The notes below the pieces were generated by a model. It saw only the letters and a list, made by a program, of their open reading frames with translations. It was not told the origin of the DNA and did no database searches. A stretch of 64,000 bases of DNA, from NCBI GenBank assembly GCA_949130485.1, contig OX422201.1:5943627-6007626 (forward strand), read 5' to 3'. This document shows positions 44,858 through 60,900 of the stretch, piece after piece; positions within the stretch are counted from its first letter, which is position 1; every line of letters starts with the position of its first letter. A program made the translations under genes and the position numbers. Source of the stretch: Agelas oroides (lineage: Eukaryota; Porifera; Demospongiae; Agelasida; Agelasidae).

Positions 44858-47800
44858 TTAACTTCGTTTTGTGGATGGCTGTGCATCAAACTTCAGTAAT
44901 GACAAGTTTTTTCTTGGACTGATGGTGCTATTATTCCACATAGTAGCTGGAGTAGTGTAAACAGTGATACAAAGTACCATGAGCCTCGGATCTGGTTTAC
45001 TGGGACGGTTTGGTGGACCTGGGTGTGTTTCTTTTGTGAGCTCATCACTGTACTCTCCCCTTCGGTTTTGATTTACAGCAACAATTTTAAAACGGTACTT
45101 GGTGTTTGGCTTGAGGTTTGGAATTTGTACACTCCGGTCTGATTTTTGTGATATTGGCATCTTTTTCCACTCTCCTCCAACTTCTTTGAACTCTACTTCA
45201 TAGTGTGTGACTGCTCGAGAGAAACGGTGAGGTTTATCCCATTTTATTTTAATCCAATCATGTGATACATCAGTAACATCAAGCTTCTGTGGCTTTCCAG
45301 GGACCAGGTTATGTGCTGGTACTTCAATGTGATCACTTGGTTCACTTCTACAAACTTCATTTTCCACTAACACTCGGAAATAGAATGAATCATCTTTGAG
45401 GGGTATATCCTTCTTTATGACTCTATCACATTTCATGGGAAATGGCTTCTCATAATCAGTCCACTCTGCATTAGGGTCCTCTTCAGTGCATACTTGGACT
45501 ATGAGCTGAGTAACTGGGCTTCCATTTTCATCCTTCTTGTTAAACCTTGGGACAGTGATAGTAGCTTTCTGGTCTGATAGCACTTGTATATCTGGTTTAC
45601 TGGGACGGTTTGGTGGACCTGGGTCTGTCTTCTGGGACACCTCCTGACTATATTTTCCTTCTTGGTTCCCATTTTTTGCACAAACACGAAACCAATAGTC
45701 AGTATCGGGATCAAGGTTTTTGAATGATGCACACATCTTAGTGCAAGGCACAGTTGTCTTGTGTGTCCATAAGCTCTCACCATTTGCTTTCATTTCCACT
45801 TCAAATTGTTTTGCAGCTCTTGGGCAAGCAAAGGGCATTTTCCAGCAGAGTTGTATTTCATTGCAAGTTACTTTAGAGAATTCAACATTCTGAGGTGGAC
45901 CTGGTATTAAGTCTTTTTCAGGCACTGCAACCCACTCACTTGGCTTACTCTCTCCGATTCCATTTACCATTACAACTCGAAAGTAGCATGCATTATTGGC
46001 AAGTTGGATGCCTATTTGGATTTCAGGTGGACCCGTGTCCATGGGAAGCCTGCTACAGCAAAGTTTCCAGTTGGTGTATGTTGCAGAGCACTCCTCAATC
46101 TTAATGAGAGTAATATGGCTTCCATTTTGCTCCTCCTCAGTTAGTTTATTAATGTTAATGAGAACTTTTCTGGCAGATACCACTTCTATTACTGGTTTTG
46201 AGGGTTGGCATGGTGGGCCTGGAGCTGATTTGATTTCAAGCACGTCACTCCATTCACCATATTTTGCCTCATTTTTGCCACGAACTCGAAAACTATATAC
46301 AGTAATGGGTTTGAGGTTTGAGAATGTAGCAATTAATTTTTCCACACTTTGATAAGTGGGCTGACTGCTACCTTCCTGTTGCATCTCCACTTCATACTGC
46401 TTTACTGCTTGTGGTTGAGCATCAGGTTTATCCCAGGAAACAGTAATTTTGTTGTGCAATGTACCTGTAACCCAGAGGTTTTCCTTTTCCTGGAAATTTT
46501 GTGGTAGCCCAGGGATCAAGTATGGCGCTTGAAATATATCACTGGGATCACTAACACCAATGTCATTCTTCATTCGAATTCGAAAACATTGCATGCAATT
46601 TTGAAGTACTATATCATTTTTAATCAGTGTCATACTGGTATCGGCTTCAAACTTGTCAGATGACCAGTGGTCACCCACAGCTCTCTTTTCAATTATGACA
46701 TGAGTAACAGGGCTTCCATTTTCATCCTCTTTGTTGAGCCGCTGAACTGCAACAATGGCCATCTGAGGGGCAGTAATAGTCACTTCTGGCTTTGATGGTT
46801 TGCTGGGTACACCCGGGCTTGTTCGAGTATCATACACCTCTGATGATTCCCCTTCCTTGTTCTCATTCACAGCACGAACACGGAACCTGTACTTTGTGTT
46901 TGGCTTCAAGTTCTTAACTGCAGCAGTCAATAAATCTGATTGGGTTTCAGCAATTACATGCCATACACCAGTGATAGTTCCACTCTGCACCTCATATGTC
47001 TTCACTGCAAATGGATGAATGTTGGGCTGACTCCACCTTAAGGTGATCTGATACATTCCATTATCCGAGTTAATATCTTGAGGAGGCCCAGGAATCAGTT
47101 CACTGGTGGCTACTATTGTCCAATCACTTGGTTCACTTTCACCAACACTGTTCTTCATTGAAACTCGAAAATGGTAGCTATAGAAACTGTCACATGTAAC
47201 ACAATCCAAGGGAAGGTCTTTTGTCATATGTGTATCTTTGATATTTCCATGTGGTTCTACTGGAAAGTGTGTCACTTTCAACGGAGTGTCTTGTAATTTG
47301 CTCTCAACTATGACATCAGTAATTTCACTTCCATTGTCATCATTAGGCTGCAGTTGCTGTATGAGTATGGTAGCTGTTGTGGAAGATTTAAGCCTAATAA
47401 TTGGTTTTTGAGGCTTGTTGGGCTTGCCTGGAGGAGTTGTCACTGTTAACTCTTCACTCCATTCTCCTTTGTTGCCGTGCATGTGGATGCAGACCCCATG
47501 GACACGTAAATGGTACTTGACATTTGGTTTGAGGTCAGTTATCACTATGTGCATATCTGGAGTCATGCCAGAATTTATCCATTCATTTCCTTCTATTTTT
47601 CTTTGCACTTCATAATTCCAGGCTGCATCTGTGTGAATGATAGGTCTTCTCCATGTCATTTCAGCGACCATGACATCCTCAGGTTGACCAGAAATCCATT
47701 GTGCTTTCTGCTTGAATACTTTCTCTTTTGCAGGACCAACTGCTTTGGCCATGTAATCCTCTTCCAATTTGGTTAGTCTCACATCGTTTTCCTGTTCAAC

Positions 47801-50800
47801 CAACTGATCAAATAGCAATCTGCACCGCTCAGAAGATCTTTCTTTGTTCTTTGTCACAAAGTGATGCAATTCACCCCTCACAAGCACCATTCTCTGGCCT
47901 GCTAGTCCTCCTGTTGCCTCATACTCACAAACACATTTTTTAAACTTAGTCAAGATATCCATTTTCTTCCTACAAATGTTTGAAAGAGCTGCATCAACTG
48001 GAGCAGTATTCAGAGTTGGCATGTAAAAATCAGCTTTTTGTGTGAGGATTAACTTGCATTCTTCAAAAACTTGCTGATGGAATGCCATGAGTGTTGTTGG
48101 GGGATGTTCTTCATCATCCATTGTGCCCTCCTCTAAGGGGTATTTTGGGTCGAGAATTTCGACCATTTTCATCCGATACTGCTGAACTAGTTCTTCAGTA
48201 AGATCTTCAAGTTTCTGAATGATTGTCGCATACAAGCTTCCCTCTATAATAATGTTTTCTCCTGAATTGAGTGCCTTAACATACTCTTGTGCAAGATTAG
48301 CAACCATTGAGCCATCTAGACTAGCACTGAGTCCTGGTTTTAGCTTTACACTGGACAATAGTTGTTGGACTACTTCTTTAATTGCTGCATTAAATTTTGG
48401 AGAGACTTCTTTAGGTGTCTCTGCTGGATTGTCACAAAATGGATGAGGAATTACTTTGCATTCCAGAGAAGGGAAAAGATGTAGCATGACCCGCACAACT
48501 TCATCTGAAGCGGAATAGCATGGCTTTTCACTTTGAACAAGAACTTTAGCTTTAATGTACTGAGTCCATGTTTGTGGGTTGCCATTTTCATCCTTCTGTA
48601 GTTTTACTGCTTGATTGCGAATAAGCCAAACAAAATCTGGAAAGTATTTCTTAAGGTGAGCAAGGTGTTCCTGTTTGGAGTCATCTTGGACGAGGGCAGT
48701 TGAAAGGTGTGTAAAACAGCTATAAGCAAGCAAGAATATATAAAGCGTTTAGTAACTTTTCAAACATTTACTGGTAGATGTTTGCTCATGAGTCACATGT
48801 ATTACAAAATCACTTTAAGGACATAAAATTCTAAATTACTAACAAAATTAATACTACAGATAAACATACATATGGTACCAGTATGTACAGAACATGCCTC
48901 AGGCAAGGATGAATGTAGGCATGGTTTAAATTCTCGTGCCCACAAGCTCTGCAACAAATCTAGTTGGGTTAAACCAGTTGATCCACTAAGTCATGTTTTT
49001 GCTGCACAAACCATCAGAACTCCCACTGTTGGGCCAGATATTTCCTTTTCCAGTCAAGCTACTGCCTACTCTTTCAGGCCTGCTAGACCTGGATGTTCAG
49101 TTCCATAGCTTTCCTTATCACTGTAGTTATACTATCCACCAGGAACACTGCTAGTTGAATAATGTTGAAACAGCAGGTTCCTATAATTATTCATCTCTCA
49201 AATTGTTAGACAGCCTAATTTACATGTATACTATTGCATTCCTAATTGCTTCCATTACTGGTTAAATTATATACAAAACAAACCACTTTGTTATTAGCTA
49301 AGACAAGTCTGTTTTACTGAATGTTACCTCATTTTCTGAAGGTCCTTACTCCTGGGCACACCAGTTGAATTGTAGATAAGGCAGGAGCTTAGAAGAGTTG
49401 TCATGACGAGAAGGTTAAATACACCAACACTGTTAAAGTCTCCAATAGCATCAGTCCCCTCAGTGTCTAGAAGCAGTAGTACAAACTCTTCACACTCAAG
49501 GGCAGTTGTGCCCATCCACACTCCATGTGTACAGGGTTCTATTGTATGCCCCACTTTAAAGGCATCAGGTGAACCCAGCAGTTGAGAGAGAAAGTAGGAC
49601 TTGCCACTACGATAGGGACCACAAATAGTCAGGATTGCTACTGGTTTCTTGATGTCTCGTAAAAGCAGTATAGCTTCTTCATTGAGCTTTAACTTGTTAT
49701 CATGTAGAGAAAGTAGGACAACTGAATGAGTTCCAGGAGGAGTTAGCTTACGTAGACTGAACCTTGACGATACGGGATGAGTTTCTGGGTGGCGAAAAAA
49801 AAGTTCAAAATAGCAAAGAAATCAACAAAGTGCTGTTTAGCAGACTGAGTGACAAACGATTGTCTTATTAACCACTTTTGCATCCAGTGGCTAATCAAGG
49901 CAGGCAGCAATACAAGGAAGGACAAACTTCCACATATGTCACATATCTATGAGACTAATTAGAGTGGCAATCTAGCTGTTACTATGCAGGGAGAGCTACA
50001 GAAGTAGTGTACATTCACATACTCACATGGTTTACAAACAGAAAAAACATGAGAGCTTACCTTTATTATAGCGAGTGAGAGATTGGAGCTGCAGCTGGTT
50101 ACAACTAGCAGGAGTTTGTATCTCCTCTGCTTCTTGTTGAGTAGCTTCAATCAAGACAGTCTGCAGGTGCTCAATTTGCTTTCTTGCATGGCTAGCTGCC
50201 TCCTCCAACTTCTTGTACCTGTGACTGCTGCTTTGCTGGTACTTTTTAATTAGAGATGTTCTCTCCTCAAGGATACTCTCAAGGTGCTCACAGCGATAGA
50301 CAGAATCCTGATTGAATGCTTTTAGTCGAGAAGTTTCTTCCTCCATGACAAGAAGCTTGTTTGTGCTTTTAGAGACTTGTTTTTCTAGTAGATTTATCTT
50401 TTGTTGTAATTCTTGGCAAGTGGATCTCATTTGAATAACCTAAAATTTGTTACAAATAATATCAATTGTAAAATACTTCCTTAATTAAGCCTTTAACCAC
50501 TGAATTTTACTCTCTACAGGTCTTTTTAGGCCCCTCCAAATCAATTCTCATCCCCCCTACACAGAGAACTACATACAGGTGGGTGGGCAAGCCTGAAAGT
50601 GAAGACTAATCCTTATGACATCACTTCTTGTTGTGAATAATGTACACTGTAATCACATTGCAACTACAAAAACACTTCCTTTGTCATTTATATGCTCAGT
50701 TGAGGTACAGCAAACAAAAACAGCAAACTATTTCATGATTCTTCCACTCTTCCACTTCTAGGCTCTTAGCAGAAAAAAAAAATGTGCACATGAAGATCAA

Positions 50801-53800
50801 CCTTTGGGGAGTCAAAGGTTGATAGTGTTGTCATCCGGAGCATTTATATAGACAGTTTATATAGTGAAGATATATTGAGGGGTGATCTGCAGTTAGATCT
50901 GTTCAAGGCAAACCTTAAAAATCGAAACAGAACAACGTTTATATAACTTAGTATATTCACACCTCAGAACCTCTTTGCTTCACTTGCTTCGTCAGTCGTT
51001 GTACTTCATCCTGCTTATCTTTCAGTTCCCTTCTTAATATCCGGATCTCATGTAAACTGCGGGACTTAGACTCAGCCATTTCCTTCTCAAGTTTTTTCTG
51101 AATCTCTTGTTGCTAAAGTGGGTTCATTCAGGCGTAATTAATACAAAACAAGTATTTTGATCAACGTGCTGGTCTGTACATATATAACCGAAATACAGAA
51201 TATGTATCTCTAAAACATGCAGTCTCACATTCTCAATTCCATGTGTGGGAGAGAGGGGGATAAAACTAGGCCATCAGTACCTATATTCTGAAAGATGAAA
51301 ATCAGGCACCAAGTGTGGTTTATTACCTACCCCCATGGAGCTACTCAAGAGCGCATGATGATATAATTTCTTATTGCGGAGGGAGGAGGATAAAAAATGG
51401 CGTCATCATGTGCTCTTGAGCTACTGGTATGTACATAGTAGAAAATATGATCTCTGACATTACGTTACATATGTTATATCGACACCCACTTCCAAAATCA
51501 TAATAGGAGGTGGGATCAGTTAGAAACATACTCTGCCCACCTTTAGCATCTCATGTAAACTGCGGGATTTAGACTCAGCCATTTCCTTCTCAAGCTTCTT
51601 CTGGATCTCTTGTTGCTAAAGTGGGTTCATTCAAGTGTGAACAAGTATTTTGATCAACATGTTGGTCTGTGCATACATAACTGAAATGCAGAATATGTAT
51701 CCCTAAAAGTCTCATTCTCAATTGCATGTGTGGGAGAGAGGAATAAAACTAGGCCTTCAGTACCTACATTCTGAAAGATGAAACTCGACTTAGACACCGC
51801 TGAGTGTGGTTTATTATCTACCTCAATGGAGTTACTGGTATGTACATAGTAGAAACATGATCTCTGAGTTATAGACACTTTTGATCGACACCCACTTCCA
51901 AAAACAAAATAGGAGGTGGGATCACATACTCTGCCCACCTTTTGAAGCTCTCTGTGCACGTGCAGAAAATCATGAAACTGTCTTGGATGCTGCTCACTGA
52001 GTCTTTTGAGCTGTGCATTCAGTGATTGGGTGGTTGGTCGCTTGTTTTGGTCATCAAGAAGACACTCCATTGCTAGTGGGTACAGGCAGTGGTCCTGGCT
52101 CATTTCTCTTATTACGCTCATCCTTTTTGCAATTTGCATCTTCCCCTTTTCTATATACTCAAATGGTACTTCATGTACATTAGGAAACTTTTGTGTTACT
52201 GCATGCAAAGTTAGTGTCCCGAAGGAAAACACATCAAGTTTGTAATTGTAATGAGGGTTTTCTTGAAGTGCCTCAGGTGGCATAACTGCAATTGTGCCAG
52301 GTGCAAATGTGTGGGATTGCTTGCATGTCATGAGATCAATTATCTTCGCAACACCAAGATCAGCAAGTTTTCCCTGCATATCAGTAGTTAGCAGGACATT
52401 CCTAGCTTTCAAATCTCGATGGATGATTGCTGGGGTTTGGGTATGCAAGTAAAGGAGGCCATAAGAGACATCCAGCAATATGGAGATCTTGATGGGGAGG
52501 GGCATGTTTGGGTTTTCAGTCAGACAATGATGCAAGTCCATATGCAGGTACTCCATCAGTAGCATTAGGTCTCCCTCACGCTTTCCGTAGCACACACCAA
52601 GAAATTGTACTATATTCGGATGTCTCAATCTGCTTAGAATTATGCACTCCCTGCGAAAATTCTCACAAAGCATTTTTTTCTCTTGAGTGCTAACAGCCTC
52701 ATGCTGTCCATAGCCTTGAAGGATATCATGCAAACGTTTTGCAATGCATGGCACTCCATTTGCTTTGACCTCATAGACTGCTCCAAATGATCCACGTCCC
52801 TTCACGTGCTTGTCTTCCAATAGTCCTTCGACATTGCAGATTTCGTAAGATTTCAGTTCGTCAGCTATATCTTGTTTTGGGTTAGATGGCTGAGCACCAG
52901 CATTGACTTTTTCAAATGGATGCTCATCAGCATTAAAATTGGGCTGCAGATTGAAGGTTTAACAGTTCAACATATACAAGTAATATGTATGTATGTATAT
53001 ACACACATACATATGTATATACATGTACCAGTAAACAGGTTATACAAGTGTAGCTACGTCTTTACAGGATATACACAACTATAGCATGAGGCATAAATAG
53101 CAACATGAACAAATTCGCAGTTTGCCAAACTATATATAAAGTGAAAAAAAGGCTCCCTGATGATTCAAGGATGAACTCTACTATACTAGTAATGATTGAC
53201 TTGGACAACTATTTACATCAGCTGCAACTGCCACCATGTAGGGATGGTGCCCACAAGATACCAGTGTACTGCAACCACTCCCCCTCCAACCCATCTCAAA
53301 TAGAAATCATACTATTATCTGTTATAGCAAATTGCTATCTGTTTTTGGGGACACACTGCTGTGTCTCATGGTATAAATAAAAATTATAAAAAGATTATAG
53401 ATTATAGACCACATTTAGAAGCATGATTCGATAATACATGAATGAAGTGCATACCATTTTATTTGTTGCATGAGCAGTGATGTTCATTGGGTAAATACAA
53501 TTGTATGAAGGTTTGGGTGAAGATAGTCCTGTGCCCAGCCAAATCCGTCTTTAAACCAATCAGCAAGCTTTTGTGACTGAGTGCCTACCTATTGTGTGGG
53601 CTAAGCAGTAAGTAGTCTGTGTTTACAAGCTAAGCCGACTTCCATCATTTTACAGTTGTTACAATGAGCAGGTTTTCAAGACTAGCAAGCTTATGTGTGT
53701 TGATGACCCAGTGTGACGAATCAAGTCTGAGCCTTCTACTTGTCTTTATATATACCAAGTTAGCTTTAGCATTGCAGTAGCTTGAAGGCCCATTTGTAAT

Positions 53801-56351
53801 TGATGACAAGTGTATGCACTTGCTAAGGCTCTCCCCACAATGTCCTGCATTCCTCAGATAGTAATCAAGACCACAGTACATAGACCATGCATGTAGCTAC
53901 GCATAGCAGCAGAGTTTATGAGCAATTCAAGCTGCCTCTTGCAGAAGGCATGAGGCAGTGCACAGAATAGCTTGCCATAAAGCACACAATGTACTTAGAA
54001 AATGTTATAATGTCTTACTTGAACCTTTAACAGTGTAACACCTTAGTATGACTAATAACATTATGAACACACCTAGCCTCGTTCCCAGGCCCCACCCAGC
54101 TTTCCGTCGCTTACAGTACGGAAACGGCTTTTCCATACCGTACTGCAAGCAACGGAAAGCTGGGTGGGGCCTGGGAACGAGGCTAGAACACACCTTCATT
54201 TTCAATGGTGTTGTCTGCAGGAGACGCTCAAACTCCATGGGATAGATGCATTGCTCCTCCAGCATTACTCTCTGAATGTGCTGCCTAGCAAACATGTCTA
54301 AAGATTCTCGTGCCATTCTCGTGACATACTTAACTAGGTTAGTGGGGAAGAGCCACGTGATGCCTAAGCACCCTTCAGCAATGTTGTAGAGTATCATTGC
54401 AGGTTGGGGGAGGACAAAGTGGATTGCAAGTGACTCCCACAGTTCAAAGACATAGCTGAGGGAGTGTTCAGTGATGTTAGCCTTGACTTTGACAGAAAGC
54501 TTTTTGAAAACGCTTGGTGGCGGAAGAGCTGGAAGTTTCTCATCAGCTGAGTGCTCATAGTTAGTGGCATCCAGGTATGTTTGGATCTGCAGAGTGAGAA
54601 TGTGACCTGTTAGATCTTTCTGGTATTCTTCCATCATAGTCTTCAGCTCATTGTCATCACCTGCAAACTGCTCAATGATACTCTGCAGAAGGTAGTAGTT
54701 GAGGTAATCCCACATCTGGTATTTGCTGAGTGCACGAAATATTTCAGCCAGGCTTGTAGCAGACTCTACTACTGTGGTGACTGTACCACTTCCGTCTCTG
54801 GAGCCAGGAGAGGAGTACATCGTGATAAGATGTGTCTGGAAATCTTCAATGTTGATGTTTCTACCTCGTAGCCTTGTGCAGCTTGTTGTCACTAGTGTGG
54901 AAAACTTTCCTTGAATCCGTAAAATGTTGCGTCGTGCAACAGCTTCAGTGGATGGGTTTGTGAAGGATGGACTTTCTGGTTTTGTGATGGATGGAGTGCC
55001 AGTGCCTAGAAAAATACAAGAAGTGTTCTCTTTATGAATTTTGGTCCTGTTTTATAATGTGTTTCTTCGGATTGTGCAATCTCTGTAGCCTCATTCCCAG
55101 GGGGGGGCCTGGGAACGAGGCTACAATCTCTGAGTGAAAGCTCCAATACCAAGAATATATACTTGATTTGCTACTCTGCAGCTAGGATCCCACAAACAAC
55201 CTCTGTAAAGATATTAACAGCTATGTTGTGATTAACTCCTGATGTCCACCTGACGTCCAGGGTAAATCACTGTACATAACCAATTTCACAATGCCTTCCC
55301 TGTATAGCATTAAATGCTGGATGAGAAGGCTCGTGTATCAAAAAGCTAGGCAAGTCAGTGGAAGGTCTCATACATATCTAGTCTCCAGAGAAGAAAACAC
55401 TGTGGTGCTTTGCTATGGCAGTAATACTGAGGCTCACAGCTAGCCACCAGACTGAGTATTCAATGCATTGCTGATAAACAGCATAATAATTAGCAAACTC
55501 TGGATACGGATGGAGTGCATGCATGCACAAGCTGTTACTAGTTAATCAAGCAACTGTTACAGCACAATTATACTTCTTGCTAGCTAGCTATAAGTATCAT
55601 GCAGTTGACACAATCTCCCTATGAGGATGTATCTTGCTCTCTTTCACGATATTTGACTTCACTGGGATCTTTCACACATAGAGCTTTGAACTGCCCTGAC
55701 TCAGTAGCACGCATACTCCAGTATATTCTGCATTGAACATGTGTCCAGACTCCACGTATGCCCGGTCTCTGCCATATCTAAGTTGTTGCAAACTGTTCAT
55801 ACAGAGGCTGATGTTCACAAATTCAATGCTATGTTGAATTTAACGTACTGACTTCAAAAATTTTGGTTGGACAGACAGACGGACAAACAAAACCCACTTT
55901 TTGCATTTGTGTGTATGGCAACAAAATTCCTGTTTTAGCGAAATATTTGGTTACTATAGGTTGGTTACTATCCTTCTCATCCTAATTCAAAGAACAAAGT
56001 GCTGGAAAGGTGAGCTGATACCTGAGTGAAATTTATTTGTACCAGCTAGAACAACAAATTAAAGTAGCTTACTTGGAGGTACTTTTTGAATGTACTTCTG
56101 TTCGATCCTTTCTGCCACAGTCTTCTCCCCCATCTGCTGAAGAGTTCCCACCACATCTCTCCATGAGGCACTGGGTATGCGCCGTAGCCATAGGGAAAAT
56201 ATTTCTCGTTTCCATCCATCACACCCTTCAGCAGGGTGGCTCCTCTGAATCTGGTCTAGCTCATAGTCTTGCAAACCAAGGTAGAGTCCCAGCTTACGCC
56301 AGTCAGAAACACTGACCAGCTCATTGCAAAGGGTACCAGTGTCCAGTTTCC
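44858..56351 (-). CDS. DEATH-kinase-coiled coil-GBP GTPase-FN3 fusion protein
   Basis: Eight exons: 56351-56073, 55005-54194, 52943-51939, 51615-51541, 51112-50963, 50439-50061, 49784-49328, 48719-44858; 7019 bp, all phases agree, ~2340 aa; the 5' exon with the ATG is not found. Order (recovered numbering): DEATH domain 1-93 ('DWRKLGLYLGLQDYELDQI', 'ASWRDVV'); helical region 94-364; kinase ~408-660 (GRGSFGAVYEV, IAKRL, HRDLKARNVLL, DLG, PPE), TKL/RIPK-like; coiled coil 700-900; GBP/atlastin-type GTPase ~925-1090 (P-loop GPYRSGKS, HTIEPCTHGVWM, DTEG, FPDFVWLIRN); GBP-like helical region to ~1395; nine FN3 modules to ~2290; a 45-aa tail. It is presumably cytoplasmic: no signal or membrane helix seen. 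DEATH domains self-associate in death and immune signalling; GBPs assemble on membranes or pathogens. A joined role is inference. Odd points: RN where GBPs have RD, DLG for DFG. Confidence 0.85.
50963..51900 (-). repeat. Tandem segmental duplication inside the fusion gene
   Basis: 51115-51310 and 51617-51785 are near-identical intron stretches (AAAGTGGGTTCATTCA, TATTTTGATCAACNTG, GTGTGGGAGAGAG). Exons 51615-51541 and 51112-50963 begin with the same 20+ residues (QQEIQKKLEKEMAESKS...). The 51541 and 51939 donors lie in matching sequence too. So one ~500-bp unit with a coiled-coil exon was duplicated. Confidence 0.9.
54074..54185. mobile_element. TAGCCTCG foldback-family element at a splice donor, 112 bp
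   Basis: Perfect 9-bp duplication GAACACACC at 54065-54073 and 54186-54194. The arms TAGCCTCGTTCCCAGGCCCC, ACCCAGCTTTCCGT pair with the inverse. The right duplication overlaps the donor of exon 55005-54194 of the fusion gene. Confidence 0.9.
55086..55123. mobile_element. TAGCCTCG foldback-family element, 38 bp (shortest copy)
   Basis: Perfect 9-bp duplication CAATCTCTG at 55077-55085 and 55124-55132. Only the two ends remain, joined by a G-run (CCCAGGGGGGGGCCTGGG). It lies in the first recovered intron of the fusion gene. Confidence 0.9.
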
Positions 56352-56785: not shown

Positions 56786-57655
56786 ATTGGTATGTGCAGA
56801 ACCTCTGCTTCAGTTCATCAGTGGCTCTTCTGCAGCCATTTGTGGAAGAGCAGTTCTAGCAGCAGCAAGCTGCACCAGGGATATCTCAGTGGAGGCTTGT
56901 CTATTGATTGTGCAGGGCCTGCGTTACCGTGACCTGACAACTTACTACCAAAGATATCCACACACAATTTTACAAAAACTGTTATTCTGTACACATTTTG
57001 TTGAGTAGGTGAAACGACACAAATTGATATTTAGTAGGCCAAATAAGAGCTTAGTCAAAATGAGACAATCCCTCTACTATTACCTTCCATCTCTCTTCCT
57101 TCTCTCTCCTCTCTAGGAGCTGAAGCCCCTCTAGTTTTGTCCCCTTGTGCATGTGTTATTTGCAAAGGCAGTCTCCGAGTGTGTGAAGCAGCTCTACCAG
57201 TCTGCTCATGTTGCTGGGTATTCCTTGCCAACTGTAAGTGACTCCTTCTCTTTTTTCTTGATACATCCAACCCTACATATATGCGACAGTGGAGGAACTG
57301 CATTCAGGGGAATTGTATGGGACCATCCATTGTAGGATATCCGACTATTTGACAGCCTGGGCGTTGCATGGATGCAACGCCATAGGCATTACTGTTAGAC
57401 AAGTGGATTGTGGGTTAGGGTAAGGTTGGGCAGGTGAACACTAAATGCCACAGTTGTCCTTCATGCACCGGGAGTAAGATATCTTACATGACGCTCGGAC
57501 ATAATCTTTAAAGTGGGCGTGGCTGGAACTGTAACAGCGCAAGATCTCTCATACAGACTGGATAACTACATATTAATTTTTTACCTCTCTCCCAGCTTCG
57601 TCCGGGTCTTTCTGCCATGTTTGCTGTAGCAGGCAGCGATGCATGTACCCGGTAG
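56786..57655 (+). CDS. Possible 3' exons of an unknown + strand gene
   Basis: 57168-57233 (AVSECVKQLYQSAHVAGYSL..., good donor) joins in phase 0 to 57596-57655 (LRPGLSAMFAVAGSDACTR, stop). An upstream open stretch from an acceptor at 56785 reads 'LVCAEPLLQFISGSSAAICG' and 'RDISVEACLLIVQ', helical in character, but no convincing donor links it to 57168. I do not recognise it. It would lie antisense to the 5' region of the fusion gene. Confidence 0.35.
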
Positions 57656-57938: not shown

Positions 57939-60900
57939 CTATCTTCTCCGTGTCTCCCTCACAGGCAGTACATATCTCTGGGGCACACCCAGAGGAGGGG
58001 AGTACCCCTCAGGATAGGTAGTGTCCTCAAACAGAACAGAGTACTCTGAGTGCACCTGGAGAGAGAGGGGAAGAGGAAGAAAGACGGAGAGGAAGAGCCA
58101 TCTTATTGCAGAATAGCCATACATAAATGCACAAAGTCCCAAAATATTACTATGGAGTCAACACCCACAACACACAACCACTCACATCCTTTGGTTGCTC
58201 ATGGATAATAGCTCGGTAGAAGCATGTGGTCTGTGGGTACAGTGCTAGCACAAGCTGTGGAGACAGCAGTTGGACAACAGCAGGTGAAACAGTTACTATA
58301 ATGCTAACTCTAGGAGGCTCACTTGTTTAGCTCTGAAGAGTGCCTCTGGGTAGAACTGAGGGTCAGCTTTGTAGATGGGCAGTGGAATGATCCTTCTCTT
58401 ACTCACATTGTACCGCCTGCAGTGACAGTGGAAGAGTTACCAGAACCTTCTCCCTCCCTCCCTCTCCTCCTCTCCATCCCTCCACCTATCATTATTCCTC
58501 CCTCACCTCCTCTCATTGTGTCCCTCCTCATCAATGTCATCCACAATGTATCTGTGGTTGTGAGAGTTGTAAGAAACCACCTCAGCCAGGATCCATTGCT
58601 CTTCCCCATCTTCTGTACGCACCCGTGCTGCAACCTGTGGTGTGTGAAAGGATGGGGGAGGTGAAGATAAGAAGAAAAAAAGGAGTGGGAGCTTAATGCT
58701 CCAAGTATGGTTGGTATTCCACCAAGTTGAACTGCCTGACCTGGTCTGAGGGTTTACACTTGTACTTATCATCAACAGGAACACAGCCACACAGAGGAGG
58801 GGGGCTAGGAGACGAAGGAGGATGATAACAGCCACTGTGACAGCTAGTGGGTAACAATGTCAGGATATTACCTTTCTCCTGGCTTCCCCCTCCACACAGG
58901 CTGCTCCAAGGCAAACTGGTGGAGAACTGTCATCAACATGCCTCGACGCCGCCTCCTGGAATGCCAGAGAAATGAGAAATCATACTAGCCCCTTCAACAT
59001 TGTGCAATGTGTAATACAGTAGTAGCAGTAAGTGAATAGCTATATTGTTCTGACTTTTCACAAGCATGGCAATGAGGTTAAGGGTCATGGTGGACTACCC
59101 ACAGAGACAAATATGAAAACAAAGCAGTAAATAAGTACAATGTATGGGCTAGTCTGCACAAACCAAGCATATTTTCCAGTACAACATTCATTTATCACAT
59201 GACAAGGGTATAAATTGAGCAGACAGTATTCATGTAAGAACTCTGTGCAAAATTACAACAAGGAATATTCGTACATCATTGGATGTCACTCGGCAAAAGA
59301 TCAGAGAAAACTGAAAAAGGGGTGTAGCTACTCGATTTCTAAATTTCAGCACATCTCATCACCATAAAGCTTTCATAACACACTATGTTAGCACTATGTA
59401 ATTTTTTAAATGAAAAGTGACCACAATCAGTTTACCATGTGTACCATTAGCCTCGTCCCCAGGCCTTGGGGGAGGGGAGAGCCTGGGTACAAGGCTAGGG
59501 TACCATGTGTACCATCAGCCTTGTCCCCAGGCCTTGGGGGAGGGGAGAGCCTGGGTACAAGGCTAGGGTACCATGTGTACCATCAGCCTTGTCCCCAGGC
59601 CCTGGGAGAGGGAAGAGCCTGGGTACAAGGCTAGGGTACCATGTGTACCATCAGCCTTGTCCCCAGGCCCTGGGAGAGGGAAGAGCCTGGGTACAAGGCT
59701 AGGGTACCATGTGTACCATCAGCCTTGCCCCCAGGCCTTGGGAGAGGGGAGAGCCTGGGTACAAGGCTAGGGTACCATGTGCAGCAACCATTACCCTCGT
59801 CCCCAGGCCTTGGGGGAGGGGGGAGCCTGGGTACAAGGCTAGGGTACCATGTGACAAATAATATAGTTAGTAGCGGGACTTGCTTTGCATGTCGGATGTC
59901 AGACACAATAGGCTGAGTGGCGGGTCGAGCTGTACAAAGGTCAAGAGATATGAAAATGAGAGCTTTACTGGTGTAGCTAGTGAGGTGAAGACATACATTG
60001 CTTCTCTCCAATTTCTTGTCTGACTTCAGCAATCTTGTCCAGACCTTGCTCTATCAGTCTGTTAGTGAGAGAGAGAGAGAGGAGGGGAGTGGGAGAAATG
60101 GAAGCTAACATGGAACTCTGATAATACCGAGCTACTAGAGTCAACTTACGCTAGTTCTTTCTTGGCATCTTGAAGAGCATTCAAGTACAGTCCTTGAAGC
60201 TTCTGCTTGAAGTACAGTGAAACTGAGGATAAATGTAAGCATACGTAACAAGCAGAGAGAGACCTTGCCTAATTCCCAGACTGTCGTCTTCAGTTTGATC
60301 ACAGTTAGTTGTGTATGGACAGCAGGTGACTTCCCACGCGTGTAGTCAGCAGGTGACTTCCCACGCAACAATTGGGAGGTGACTGTTGTACATACCGTAG
60401 ATCTGGAAATTTTCGTTGTAAAAATATTTCCGTGGTTGCGTAAACCACGGAAAAATAACAACAACATGAAATACATTTTACAACTGATAATCATTACGGT
60501 CAGCACATTTCGTACACACGGTTTCACAGCACAGCTAGCTAGATATTTTGTGCAAGATGGCCTCTTCTTCAATACCCGCAGGTGACTTGTGGCAAATGCG
60601 TGACAATTTTCTTATTATCCGATAAATTGTTCGTCTTTACTGCCACAGTACGTCCCTACAGTGTTTCCAGATCTACGGTACCAAGCTAGTGCTATTGCAA
60701 TAGCAACGTTCTCAGCCCCCTGCCCAACTTTCTGCCTCCTCCAGCAGTAAAGTGGGAACAACAGAAAGTTGGGTAGGGACCTGGGAACAAGGCTACTGTT
60801 GTAGCCAGCCTACACTTGTTTTCACTTGCTGATTATCATGTGAGAAATTCTCTCTTCCTTGCTGTCTTCCATAGCTAGACTCTCACTACAACTTTCTGCG

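What the first reader, a model, noticed from the sequence alone, without database searches (positions are those of the whole stretch)
44858..56351. A single gene joining DEATH domain, protein kinase, coiled coil, GBP-type GTPase and nine FN3 modules
Seen: eight exons on one strand with no intervening opposite-strand gene, and all seven junctions keep phase through 7019 bp. Domains are clear by motif: DEATH (DWRKLG...), kinase (HRDLKARN), GTPase (GPYRSGKS, DTEG). Known: DEATH adaptors plus RIPK-like kinases start cell-death and NF-kB signalling, and GBPs are interferon-induced GTPases that assemble on membranes and pathogens. Inference: an all-in-one immune sensor or effector in which GTPase assembly could trigger the kinase and DEATH domains. 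I know of no described protein with this order.
Basis: partly seen in the sequence, partly recalled or inferred. Interest (0 to 1): 0.93.

Follow-up and report, generated by a model that had tools for sequence, protein, structure and literature searches.

The report
Sponge death-adaptor, kinase and GBP fusion gene
A sponge gene appears to join, in one protein, a death-adaptor front, a protein kinase, a coiled coil, a guanylate-binding-protein GTPase with an unusual change at its guanine-reading site, and a chain of fibronectin-like modules; it looks like a new combination in a known family of mix-and-match immune proteins.

Summary
The genome (259 Mb) is probably a sponge's. All 3 E2 relatives read with their flanks have a Death exon just upstream. 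The closest GBP-FN3 paralogue has a Death-E2-like exon upstream, then a linker exon homologous to the start of our kinase exon, then GBP-FN3, without kinase. So kinase and coil probably entered an older Death-E2-linker-GBP-FN3 gene. The kinase and GBP exons lack a start codon of their own. I put one gene at about 0.75; no transcript was seen. Death-TRADD-N proteins with variable C-termini, including kinases, are published for the sponge Amphimedon (PMC8195603); E2 resembles TRADD-N by eye, without profile support. I did not find this order in print, but could not see that paper's supplementary list. New variant of a known kind.

The parts
57084..57090 (-). candidate first coding exon, ATGGAAG|GTAATA (Met-Glu-Gly), phase 1; one of 7 candidates
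   Evidence: not tested by transcript
56073..56351 (-). Death-domain exon, phase 1 in and 1 out
   Evidence: Pfam Death 2.7e-8; open frame
54194..55005 (-). exon 2, 'E2' module: helical first half, TRADD-N-like second half (residues about 163-256 of the exon, by eye), phase 1 in, 0 out
   Evidence: 143 matches in own genome; no Pfam family; alignment A4
54073..54186 (.). MITE-like hairpin, 49-nt arms 96% complementary, with GTGTGTTC on both sides, just inside the E2-kinase intron
   Evidence: and sequence
52872..52943 (-). linker (PNFNADEHPFEKVNAGAQPSNPKQ) at the start of the kinase exon, homologous in DNA to the PA linker exon
   Evidence: alignment score 37, 0 of 18852 background stretches as high
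51939..52871 (-). TKL-type protein kinase; K, HRD, DLG motifs kept; ATA (Ile) where P0070-P0072 and P0074 begin with M
51541..51615 (-). coiled-coil exon 4a, hybrid made by tandem duplication
   Evidence: 51950-51573 repeats at 51552-51070 (51070 is the end of the stretch compared), 329 of 359 aligned bases identical
50963..51112 (-). coiled-coil exon 4b
50061..50439 (-). coiled-coil exon 5, phase 1 out
   Evidence: heptad periodicity of residues 699-885, 0 of 2000 shuffles as strong; no coiled-coil predictor was run
49328..49784 (-). GBP exon 1: P-loop GPYRSGKS, DTEG
   Evidence: Pfam GBP 1.3e-22; GBP1 at 2.3e-29 over the joined exons
44858..48719 (-). last exon: rest of GBP G domain, short helical part, nine FN3-type modules (about 47692-44995), short new tail, stop
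48614..48616 (-). Asn codon in G4 motif (LIRN) where relatives have Asp

Best explanation
One gene encodes a cytosolic immune-type signalling protein: Death - E2 (helical plus TRADD-N-like) - TKL kinase - coiled coil - GBP - FN3 array. It probably arose when a kinase-coiled-coil segment entered the linker exon of an older Death-E2-linker-GBP-FN3 gene, close to the kinase's former start codon. Mechanism, inferred: the GBP-FN3 part binds a target or partner GBPs; the coil and clustering bring kinases together; the Death-E2 front recruits further Death proteins. Because its G4 Asp is Asn, the GBP part is more likely a binding or clustering module with weak or altered nucleotide use than a GTP-driven motor. 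Shown: open frame, domains, paralogue structure, G4 change. Inferred: splicing in vivo, signalling role, direction of the kinase insertion.
For: Open frame through 7 junctions. A Death exon lies upstream of E2 in 3 of 3 E2 relatives read with flanks, each a Pfam Death hit, with a phase-1 donor and a fitting TACAG acceptor in each. 11 of 58 E2 hits have a listed Death hit within 4 kb upstream (I pasted 58 of 143 E2 hits and 17 of 150 Death hits, picked because they looked near, so this is a lower bound and no frequency). P0066 carries Death (22.1 bits, just under the cut-off of 22.6), E2 and ankyrin in one ORF. PA paralogue: Death-half plus E2-like exon ending in phase 0 at AAG|GTAAGG, linker exon phase 0 to 1 ending at GTAAGT, GBP exon phase 1; linker homologous in DNA to our kinase-exon start, 0 of 18852. 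No in-frame ATG before the kinase core or the GBP P-loop. Kinase-coil junction: in 7 of 7 close kinase relatives (P0068-P0074) the last Lys is followed by Val, a GTN codon, as a conserved donor read through would give (protein only). Annotated Ephydatia P0148 has a kinase (Pfam) followed, by eye, by a coil and a Cys/His-rich end. CC-GBP intron 276 nt. dN/dS against PA: 0.376 GBP exon, 0.338 GBP rest plus helical, 0.441 first FN3 stretch. G4 change.
Against: No transcript was seen. The E2-kinase gap is 1250 nt, holds an AATAAA at 53463, a MITE 7 nt past the donor, and 8 loose first-exon candidates for a separate kinase gene; the donor AAG|GTGTGT is not the commonest form. PolyA motifs do not help either way: four of the seven introns carry one and the 386 nt after the stop carry none. 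PA has no kinase, so the full order is known from this locus alone. PA's E2-like part is distant (4.9e-5 with the window E2 profile; 20% identity) and its Death half gets nothing at 0.05 for the whole ORF and 0.081 when cut out. The linker was noticed by eye before it was tested, and its protein-level comparison was not significant (724 of 5000). No contig length linked kinase relatives (P0070 on 304795) with GBP-FN3 relatives, a weak test. TRADD-N got no profile support and the low-confidence E2 model shows no strands.
Confidence: 0.72

Rival explanations
1. Two adjacent genes: a Death-E2 gene ending in the intron that holds the MITE, and a kinase-CC-GBP-FN3 gene starting in that gap.
For: 1250-nt gap with AATAAA at 53463 and 8 loose first-exon candidates in phase 0; reading through the E2 donor gives a stop near 54005 after a MITE-derived tail; E2-kinase nearness alone is expected about once by chance (my estimate from the counts).
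Against: The kinase exon opens with the linker that in PA lies between E2-like and GBP exons, in matching phase 0 in both loci.
Confidence: 0.15
2. Three genes, or a kinase-CC gene beside a GBP-FN3 gene, merely neighbours.
For: GBP-FN3 without kinase and this kinase type without GBP exist elsewhere in the genome.
Against: 276 nt for a 3' end, a promoter and a first exon; only 2 candidates with any GT donor; the GBP exon has no ATG and needs a phase-1 exon, as in PA.
Confidence: 0.08
3. A decaying copy: the gene is used at most in parts, as the G4 change and the shortened FN3 tail would suggest. It does not exclude the other readings.
For: G4 Asn; homology to PA ends near 45000 and PA/PB are longer, 2024 and 1819 aa open frames against 1296.
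Against: No frame break in 7019 nt; another copy of the last exon, P0001, keeps the frame with few residue changes; dN/dS below 0.45 over the three GBP-FN3 parts compared, though this averages both lineages.
Confidence: 0.1

Closest known systems
Death-TRADD-N lineage-specific expansion of the sponge Amphimedon, NCOA6 clade (Kaur et al. 2021, PMC8195603; outline, passages and sections 8, 10, 11, 12 read)
   Same: N-terminal Death unit, then a second module with a tiny residue plus Ser/Cys turn (37 of 38 rows of A4, counted by eye), then a variable C-terminus; S/T/Y kinase among the published C-terminal partners; large family (143 matches here)
   Different: GBP fusions are reported there for the DEDD2 clade, for which sponges are not listed, and not with kinase and FN3; TRADD-N identity of E2 not confirmed by profile here
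PA/PB paralogues, C19:3936001-3976000 and C19:4070001-4110000 of the same genome
   Same: GBP exon 67%, GBP rest plus helical part 74%, FN3 array, upstream Death-E2-like and linker exons (PA)
   Different: no kinase or coiled coil; Asp at G4; longer FN3 array
Sponge kinase-coil family (Ephydatia P0148; four copies at C3:12.41-12.51 Mb)
   Same: kinase 51-54% identical; coil nearby in P0148 and in the 2 of 4 C3 loci that I read
   Different: Cys/His-rich end, by eye, instead of GBP-FN3
Human GBP1
   Same: P-loop, DTEG, overall G domain (2.3e-29)
   Different: D184 equivalent is Asn; helical part short and followed by FN3; no CaaX end
TNNI3K / RIPK2 kinases
   Same: TKL-type kinase domain
   Different: other domains differ (recalled)

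Membership tests
GBP family | G domain with P-loop and DTEG | tested here: met
GBP family | G4 R-D guanine-specificity motif | tested here: not met
   LIRN
GBP family | GBP_C helical domain | tested here: inconclusive
   PF02841 3.6e-4, 20.5 bits, under the cut-off of 24.3, profile positions 5-58 only (the typed piece lacks four residues near its start by my slip, outside the matched part)
GBP family | GTP hydrolysis and self-assembly | not testable with these tools
   needs biochemistry
Death-TRADD-N family (PMC8195603) | Death-like domain at the N-terminus | tested here: met
   the true N-terminus is not settled
Death-TRADD-N family (PMC8195603) | TRADD-N domain | tested here: inconclusive
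   strand-helix-strand-strand-helix-strand-like pattern and G-C/S turn by eye in A4; no TRADD-N or NCOA6 model among the families shown; no PDB profile hit; model pLDDT 50, helices only
Death-TRADD-N family (PMC8195603) | variable C-terminal partners in an expanded family | tested here: met
   P0060 MATH and a RING-like match, P0066 ankyrin; Pro-rich tails; sacsin downstream of L032, fusion not shown
RIP kinases | RIPK kinase domain as closest relative | tested here: not met
   TNNI3K first, RIPK2 lower, among solved structures only
RIP kinases | Death, CARD or RHIM after the kinase (layout recalled) | tested here: not met
   Death lies before the kinase; no Death or CARD in the Pfam hits of the later exons; RHIM not searched
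Sponge kinase-coil-zinc-finger-like family | kinase followed by coil | tested here: met
Sponge kinase-coil-zinc-finger-like family | C-terminal Cys/His-rich end | tested here: not met
   GBP-FN3 follows instead

The most novel reading that the evidence does not exclude
The GBP-FN3 part is an integrated decoy: a GBP look-alike with a natural D184N-type change that no longer cycles GTP, kept as bait or as a joiner of real GBP coats, and wired to a kinase and a Death-E2 front that raise the alarm when it is engaged. This would be an animal parallel to plant receptors with integrated decoys.
Probability: 0.13. Interest if true: 0.82.

Novelty: new variant of a known kind. Interest (0 to 1): 0.56.

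Why it matters
It would put an adaptor (Death-E2), a kinase and a GBP-type pathogen-coat GTPase in one chain, where vertebrates use separate proteins, and a paralogue that lacks the kinase suggests how such a chain can be built step by step. The Asn at G4 makes the nucleotide question directly testable.

Tried and rejected
Structure of E2 (24-row alignment A2): pLDDT 50, not used for a fold search. Structure of the GBP rest plus first FN3 modules (A5, 5 rows): pLDDT 49, not used. No fold search was run. PDB profile searches for E2 gave only chance-level hits. Pfam on the 38 members of A4 gave no TRADD-N or NCOA6 model among the 25 of 69 families shown; 3 of 38 matched DED weakly (best 0.067); ten cut pieces gave none either. 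The protein-level linker comparison was not significant (724 of 5000 shuffles as high); only the DNA alignment was. Linking kinase and GBP relatives by equal contig length failed; our own kinase was not in the list, so coverage there is partial. P0001 and P0002 look like this species' own copies in another assembly (99.7% to the window's last exon, 100% to PB), so they are not independent relatives. dN/dS of the kinase against the C3 copy could not be computed (saturated); a first run on the GBP exon used a wrong frame and was redone. PolyA motifs were uninformative.

Papers. PMC8195603: outline, passages and sections 8, 10, 11, 12; its figures and Figure 4 source data, which list all architectures, were not seen, so this order might be in that list. 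PMC2714978, PMC5571548 and PMC12909245: passages only; the last species' genome is 575 Mb, so it is not this one. All other papers: search listings only; searches listed none. In the searches meant to find this order (open-access library) no listing pointed to it.

Full report
The window belongs to a 259.3-Mb assembly in 141 contigs (G000:C19:5943627-6007626).

Observation. The eight exons and 7019 nt were rebuilt exactly. The frame is open to a stop at 44858. The first exon given starts at an acceptor in phase 1, so the true start lies upstream; a neighbouring gene on the same strand carries an SGF29 tudor domain at 58509-58859 (4.3e-8), which limits the room. ATGGAAG|GTAATA at 57090 would give Met-Glu-Gly and then the Death domain, but the rule that found it gave 7 candidates.

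A missed domain. Exon 2 has no Pfam family. It has 143 matches in this genome, its own included and a few copies split in two; 14 others are nearly full-length at 59-68% identity, the rest more distant or partial. The public set holds 23 relatives within the length limits of the search, some perhaps from this species. In all three relatives whose surroundings I read (L031, L032, L033) a Pfam-recognised Death exon lies upstream on the same strand, and each has a phase-1 donor and a fitting TACAG acceptor before E2 (other acceptors are listed too, so this is compatibility, not proof). P0066 has Death, E2 and ankyrin in one ORF, the Death match just under its cut-off, and P0060 has E2, a RING-like match and MATH. 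This resembles the Death-TRADD-N proteins with variable C-termini that PMC8195603 reports for Amphimedon, 357 proteins. By eye the second half of E2 shows the expected order of strands and helices and a tiny residue plus Cys or Ser at the turn in 37 of 38 rows, which fits the motif described in section 8 of that paper. But no profile search confirmed it, and the low-confidence model (pLDDT 50) shows helices only. I treat TRADD-N as likely, not shown.

One gene or several. The strongest evidence is the paralogue PA (and its near-copy PB, 99.7% over 35.8 kb). Its GBP exon is 67% and its GBP rest plus helical part 74% identical to ours, with no match to our kinase, coil, E2 or Death at 1e-4. Yet about 7 kb upstream on the same strand is an exon with a Death-like second half and an E2-like module (the Death part scores 0.081 when cut out, and nothing at 0.05 in the whole ORF), ending in phase 0 at a good donor; then a linker exon that begins CTGCAG|CCCAAT like our kinase exon and ends in phase 1 at GTAAGT; then the GBP exon in phase 1. 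The DNA around the linker start aligns to ours with score 37; none of 18852 random stretches of the fetched loci reaches it, the best being 34. I had noticed the likeness by eye before testing it, and the protein-level comparison was not significant (724 of 5000). In the window the linker runs straight into the kinase, where Ile (ATA) stands at the place where P0070, P0071, P0072 and P0074 begin with Met; a gene caller's start can be GTG or TTG, so this is suggestive only. I read this as kinase plus coil entering the linker of an older gene. Loss of the kinase from PA is the other direction and is not excluded.

Other junctions. Kinase to coil: in 7 of 7 close relatives (P0068-P0074) the last Lys is followed by Val, a GTN codon, as expected if the donor is conserved and read through by the gene caller, and a tandem duplication has copied exon end, intron and exon start with 329 of 359 aligned bases identical while keeping the frame. 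Coil to GBP: 276 nt, two first-exon candidates with any GT donor, no ATG before the P-loop. PolyA motifs do not decide anything: four of seven introns carry AATAAA or ATTAAA, the coil-GBP intron does not, and neither do the 386 nt after the stop. The weakest junction is E2 to kinase: 1250 nt, an AATAAA at 53463, 8 loose first-exon candidates, and a MITE-like hairpin at 54073-54186. Genome-wide, of 143 E2, 114 kinase and 17 GBP matches, only this locus has any two within 20 kb. These lists are lower bounds, and PA's E2-like exon is not among them.

The GBP part. The joined GBP exons match GBP1 at 2.3e-29, and the alignment puts Asn opposite the Asp of the R-D motif. The seven other sequences in which I read the site, PA, PB, two places on C17, two on C22 and P0003, have Asp, as has P0002, which equals PB; P0001, another copy of this locus, has Asn; P0004 and P0005 do not cover it. 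PA and PB are near-copies, so these are six lineages at most. In human GBP1 D184N is called dominant negative and reported to lack GTPase activity (PMC2714978), or GTPase-deficient (PMC5571548); that it shifts preference to XTP is recalled. dN/dS against PA is 0.376 for the GBP exon, 0.338 for the rest plus helical part and 0.441 for the first FN3 stretch of 485 aligned codons, so the sequence has been constrained, averaged over both lineages. The FN3 array ends early compared with PA: homology stops near 45000, followed by a short new tail that P0001 shares.

Mechanism. I think the protein works as a clustering switch: GBP-FN3 for binding, coil for multimerising, kinase for output, Death-E2 for recruitment. 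Only the domains are shown. The boldest reading not excluded is an integrated GBP decoy.

Novelty. Kinase fusions in the sponge Death-TRADD-N family and GBP fusions to DEDD2-clade TRADD-N are in print. The combination with FN3 in one chain turned up in none of seven searches of an open-access library, judged from listings, and the supplementary list of PMC8195603 was not seen. Hence a new variant of a known kind.

Noticed in passing
C19:3936001-3976000 and C19:4070001-4110000 (L009-L016): Two copies of a GBP-FN3 locus, 99.7% identical over 35.8 kb, with different FN3 array lengths (2024 and 1819 aa open frames). Their GBP exons lie 133435 bases apart, the same number as the length of the contig that holds P0002, identical to PB: perhaps an assembly doubling, perhaps chance.
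   Followed up: partly
own genome: The E2 module has 143 matches, many on C1, C2, C3 and C11, several inside open frames of about 1000 aa that I did not read; Death has at least 150 matches (150 of 870 candidates scored; the window's own is not among those listed).
   Followed up: partly
L027 (C19:6007627-6017626): Beyond the window's end lie a Death exon (2.2e-11) and a SEFIR domain (3.9e-9) on the minus strand, near a stretch that reads N.
   Followed up: no
window 54073-54186: MITE-like hairpin with 49-nt arms just past the E2 donor; 24 nt of an arm recur at 55100-55123.
   Followed up: partly
window 51950-51070: Tandem duplication spanning the end of the kinase exon, an intron and the start of the coil exon made a 25-codon hybrid exon in frame.
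   Followed up: yes
L032 297-728: A sacsin domain (2.8e-38) follows a Death-E2 pair on the same strand; fusion not shown.
   Followed up: no
L028-L030, C3:12.46-12.52 Mb: Two kinase paralogues have coil-like ORFs on the same strand; one also has, upstream, an ORF with a Cys/His-rich end like that of Ephydatia P0148 (by eye).
   Followed up: partly
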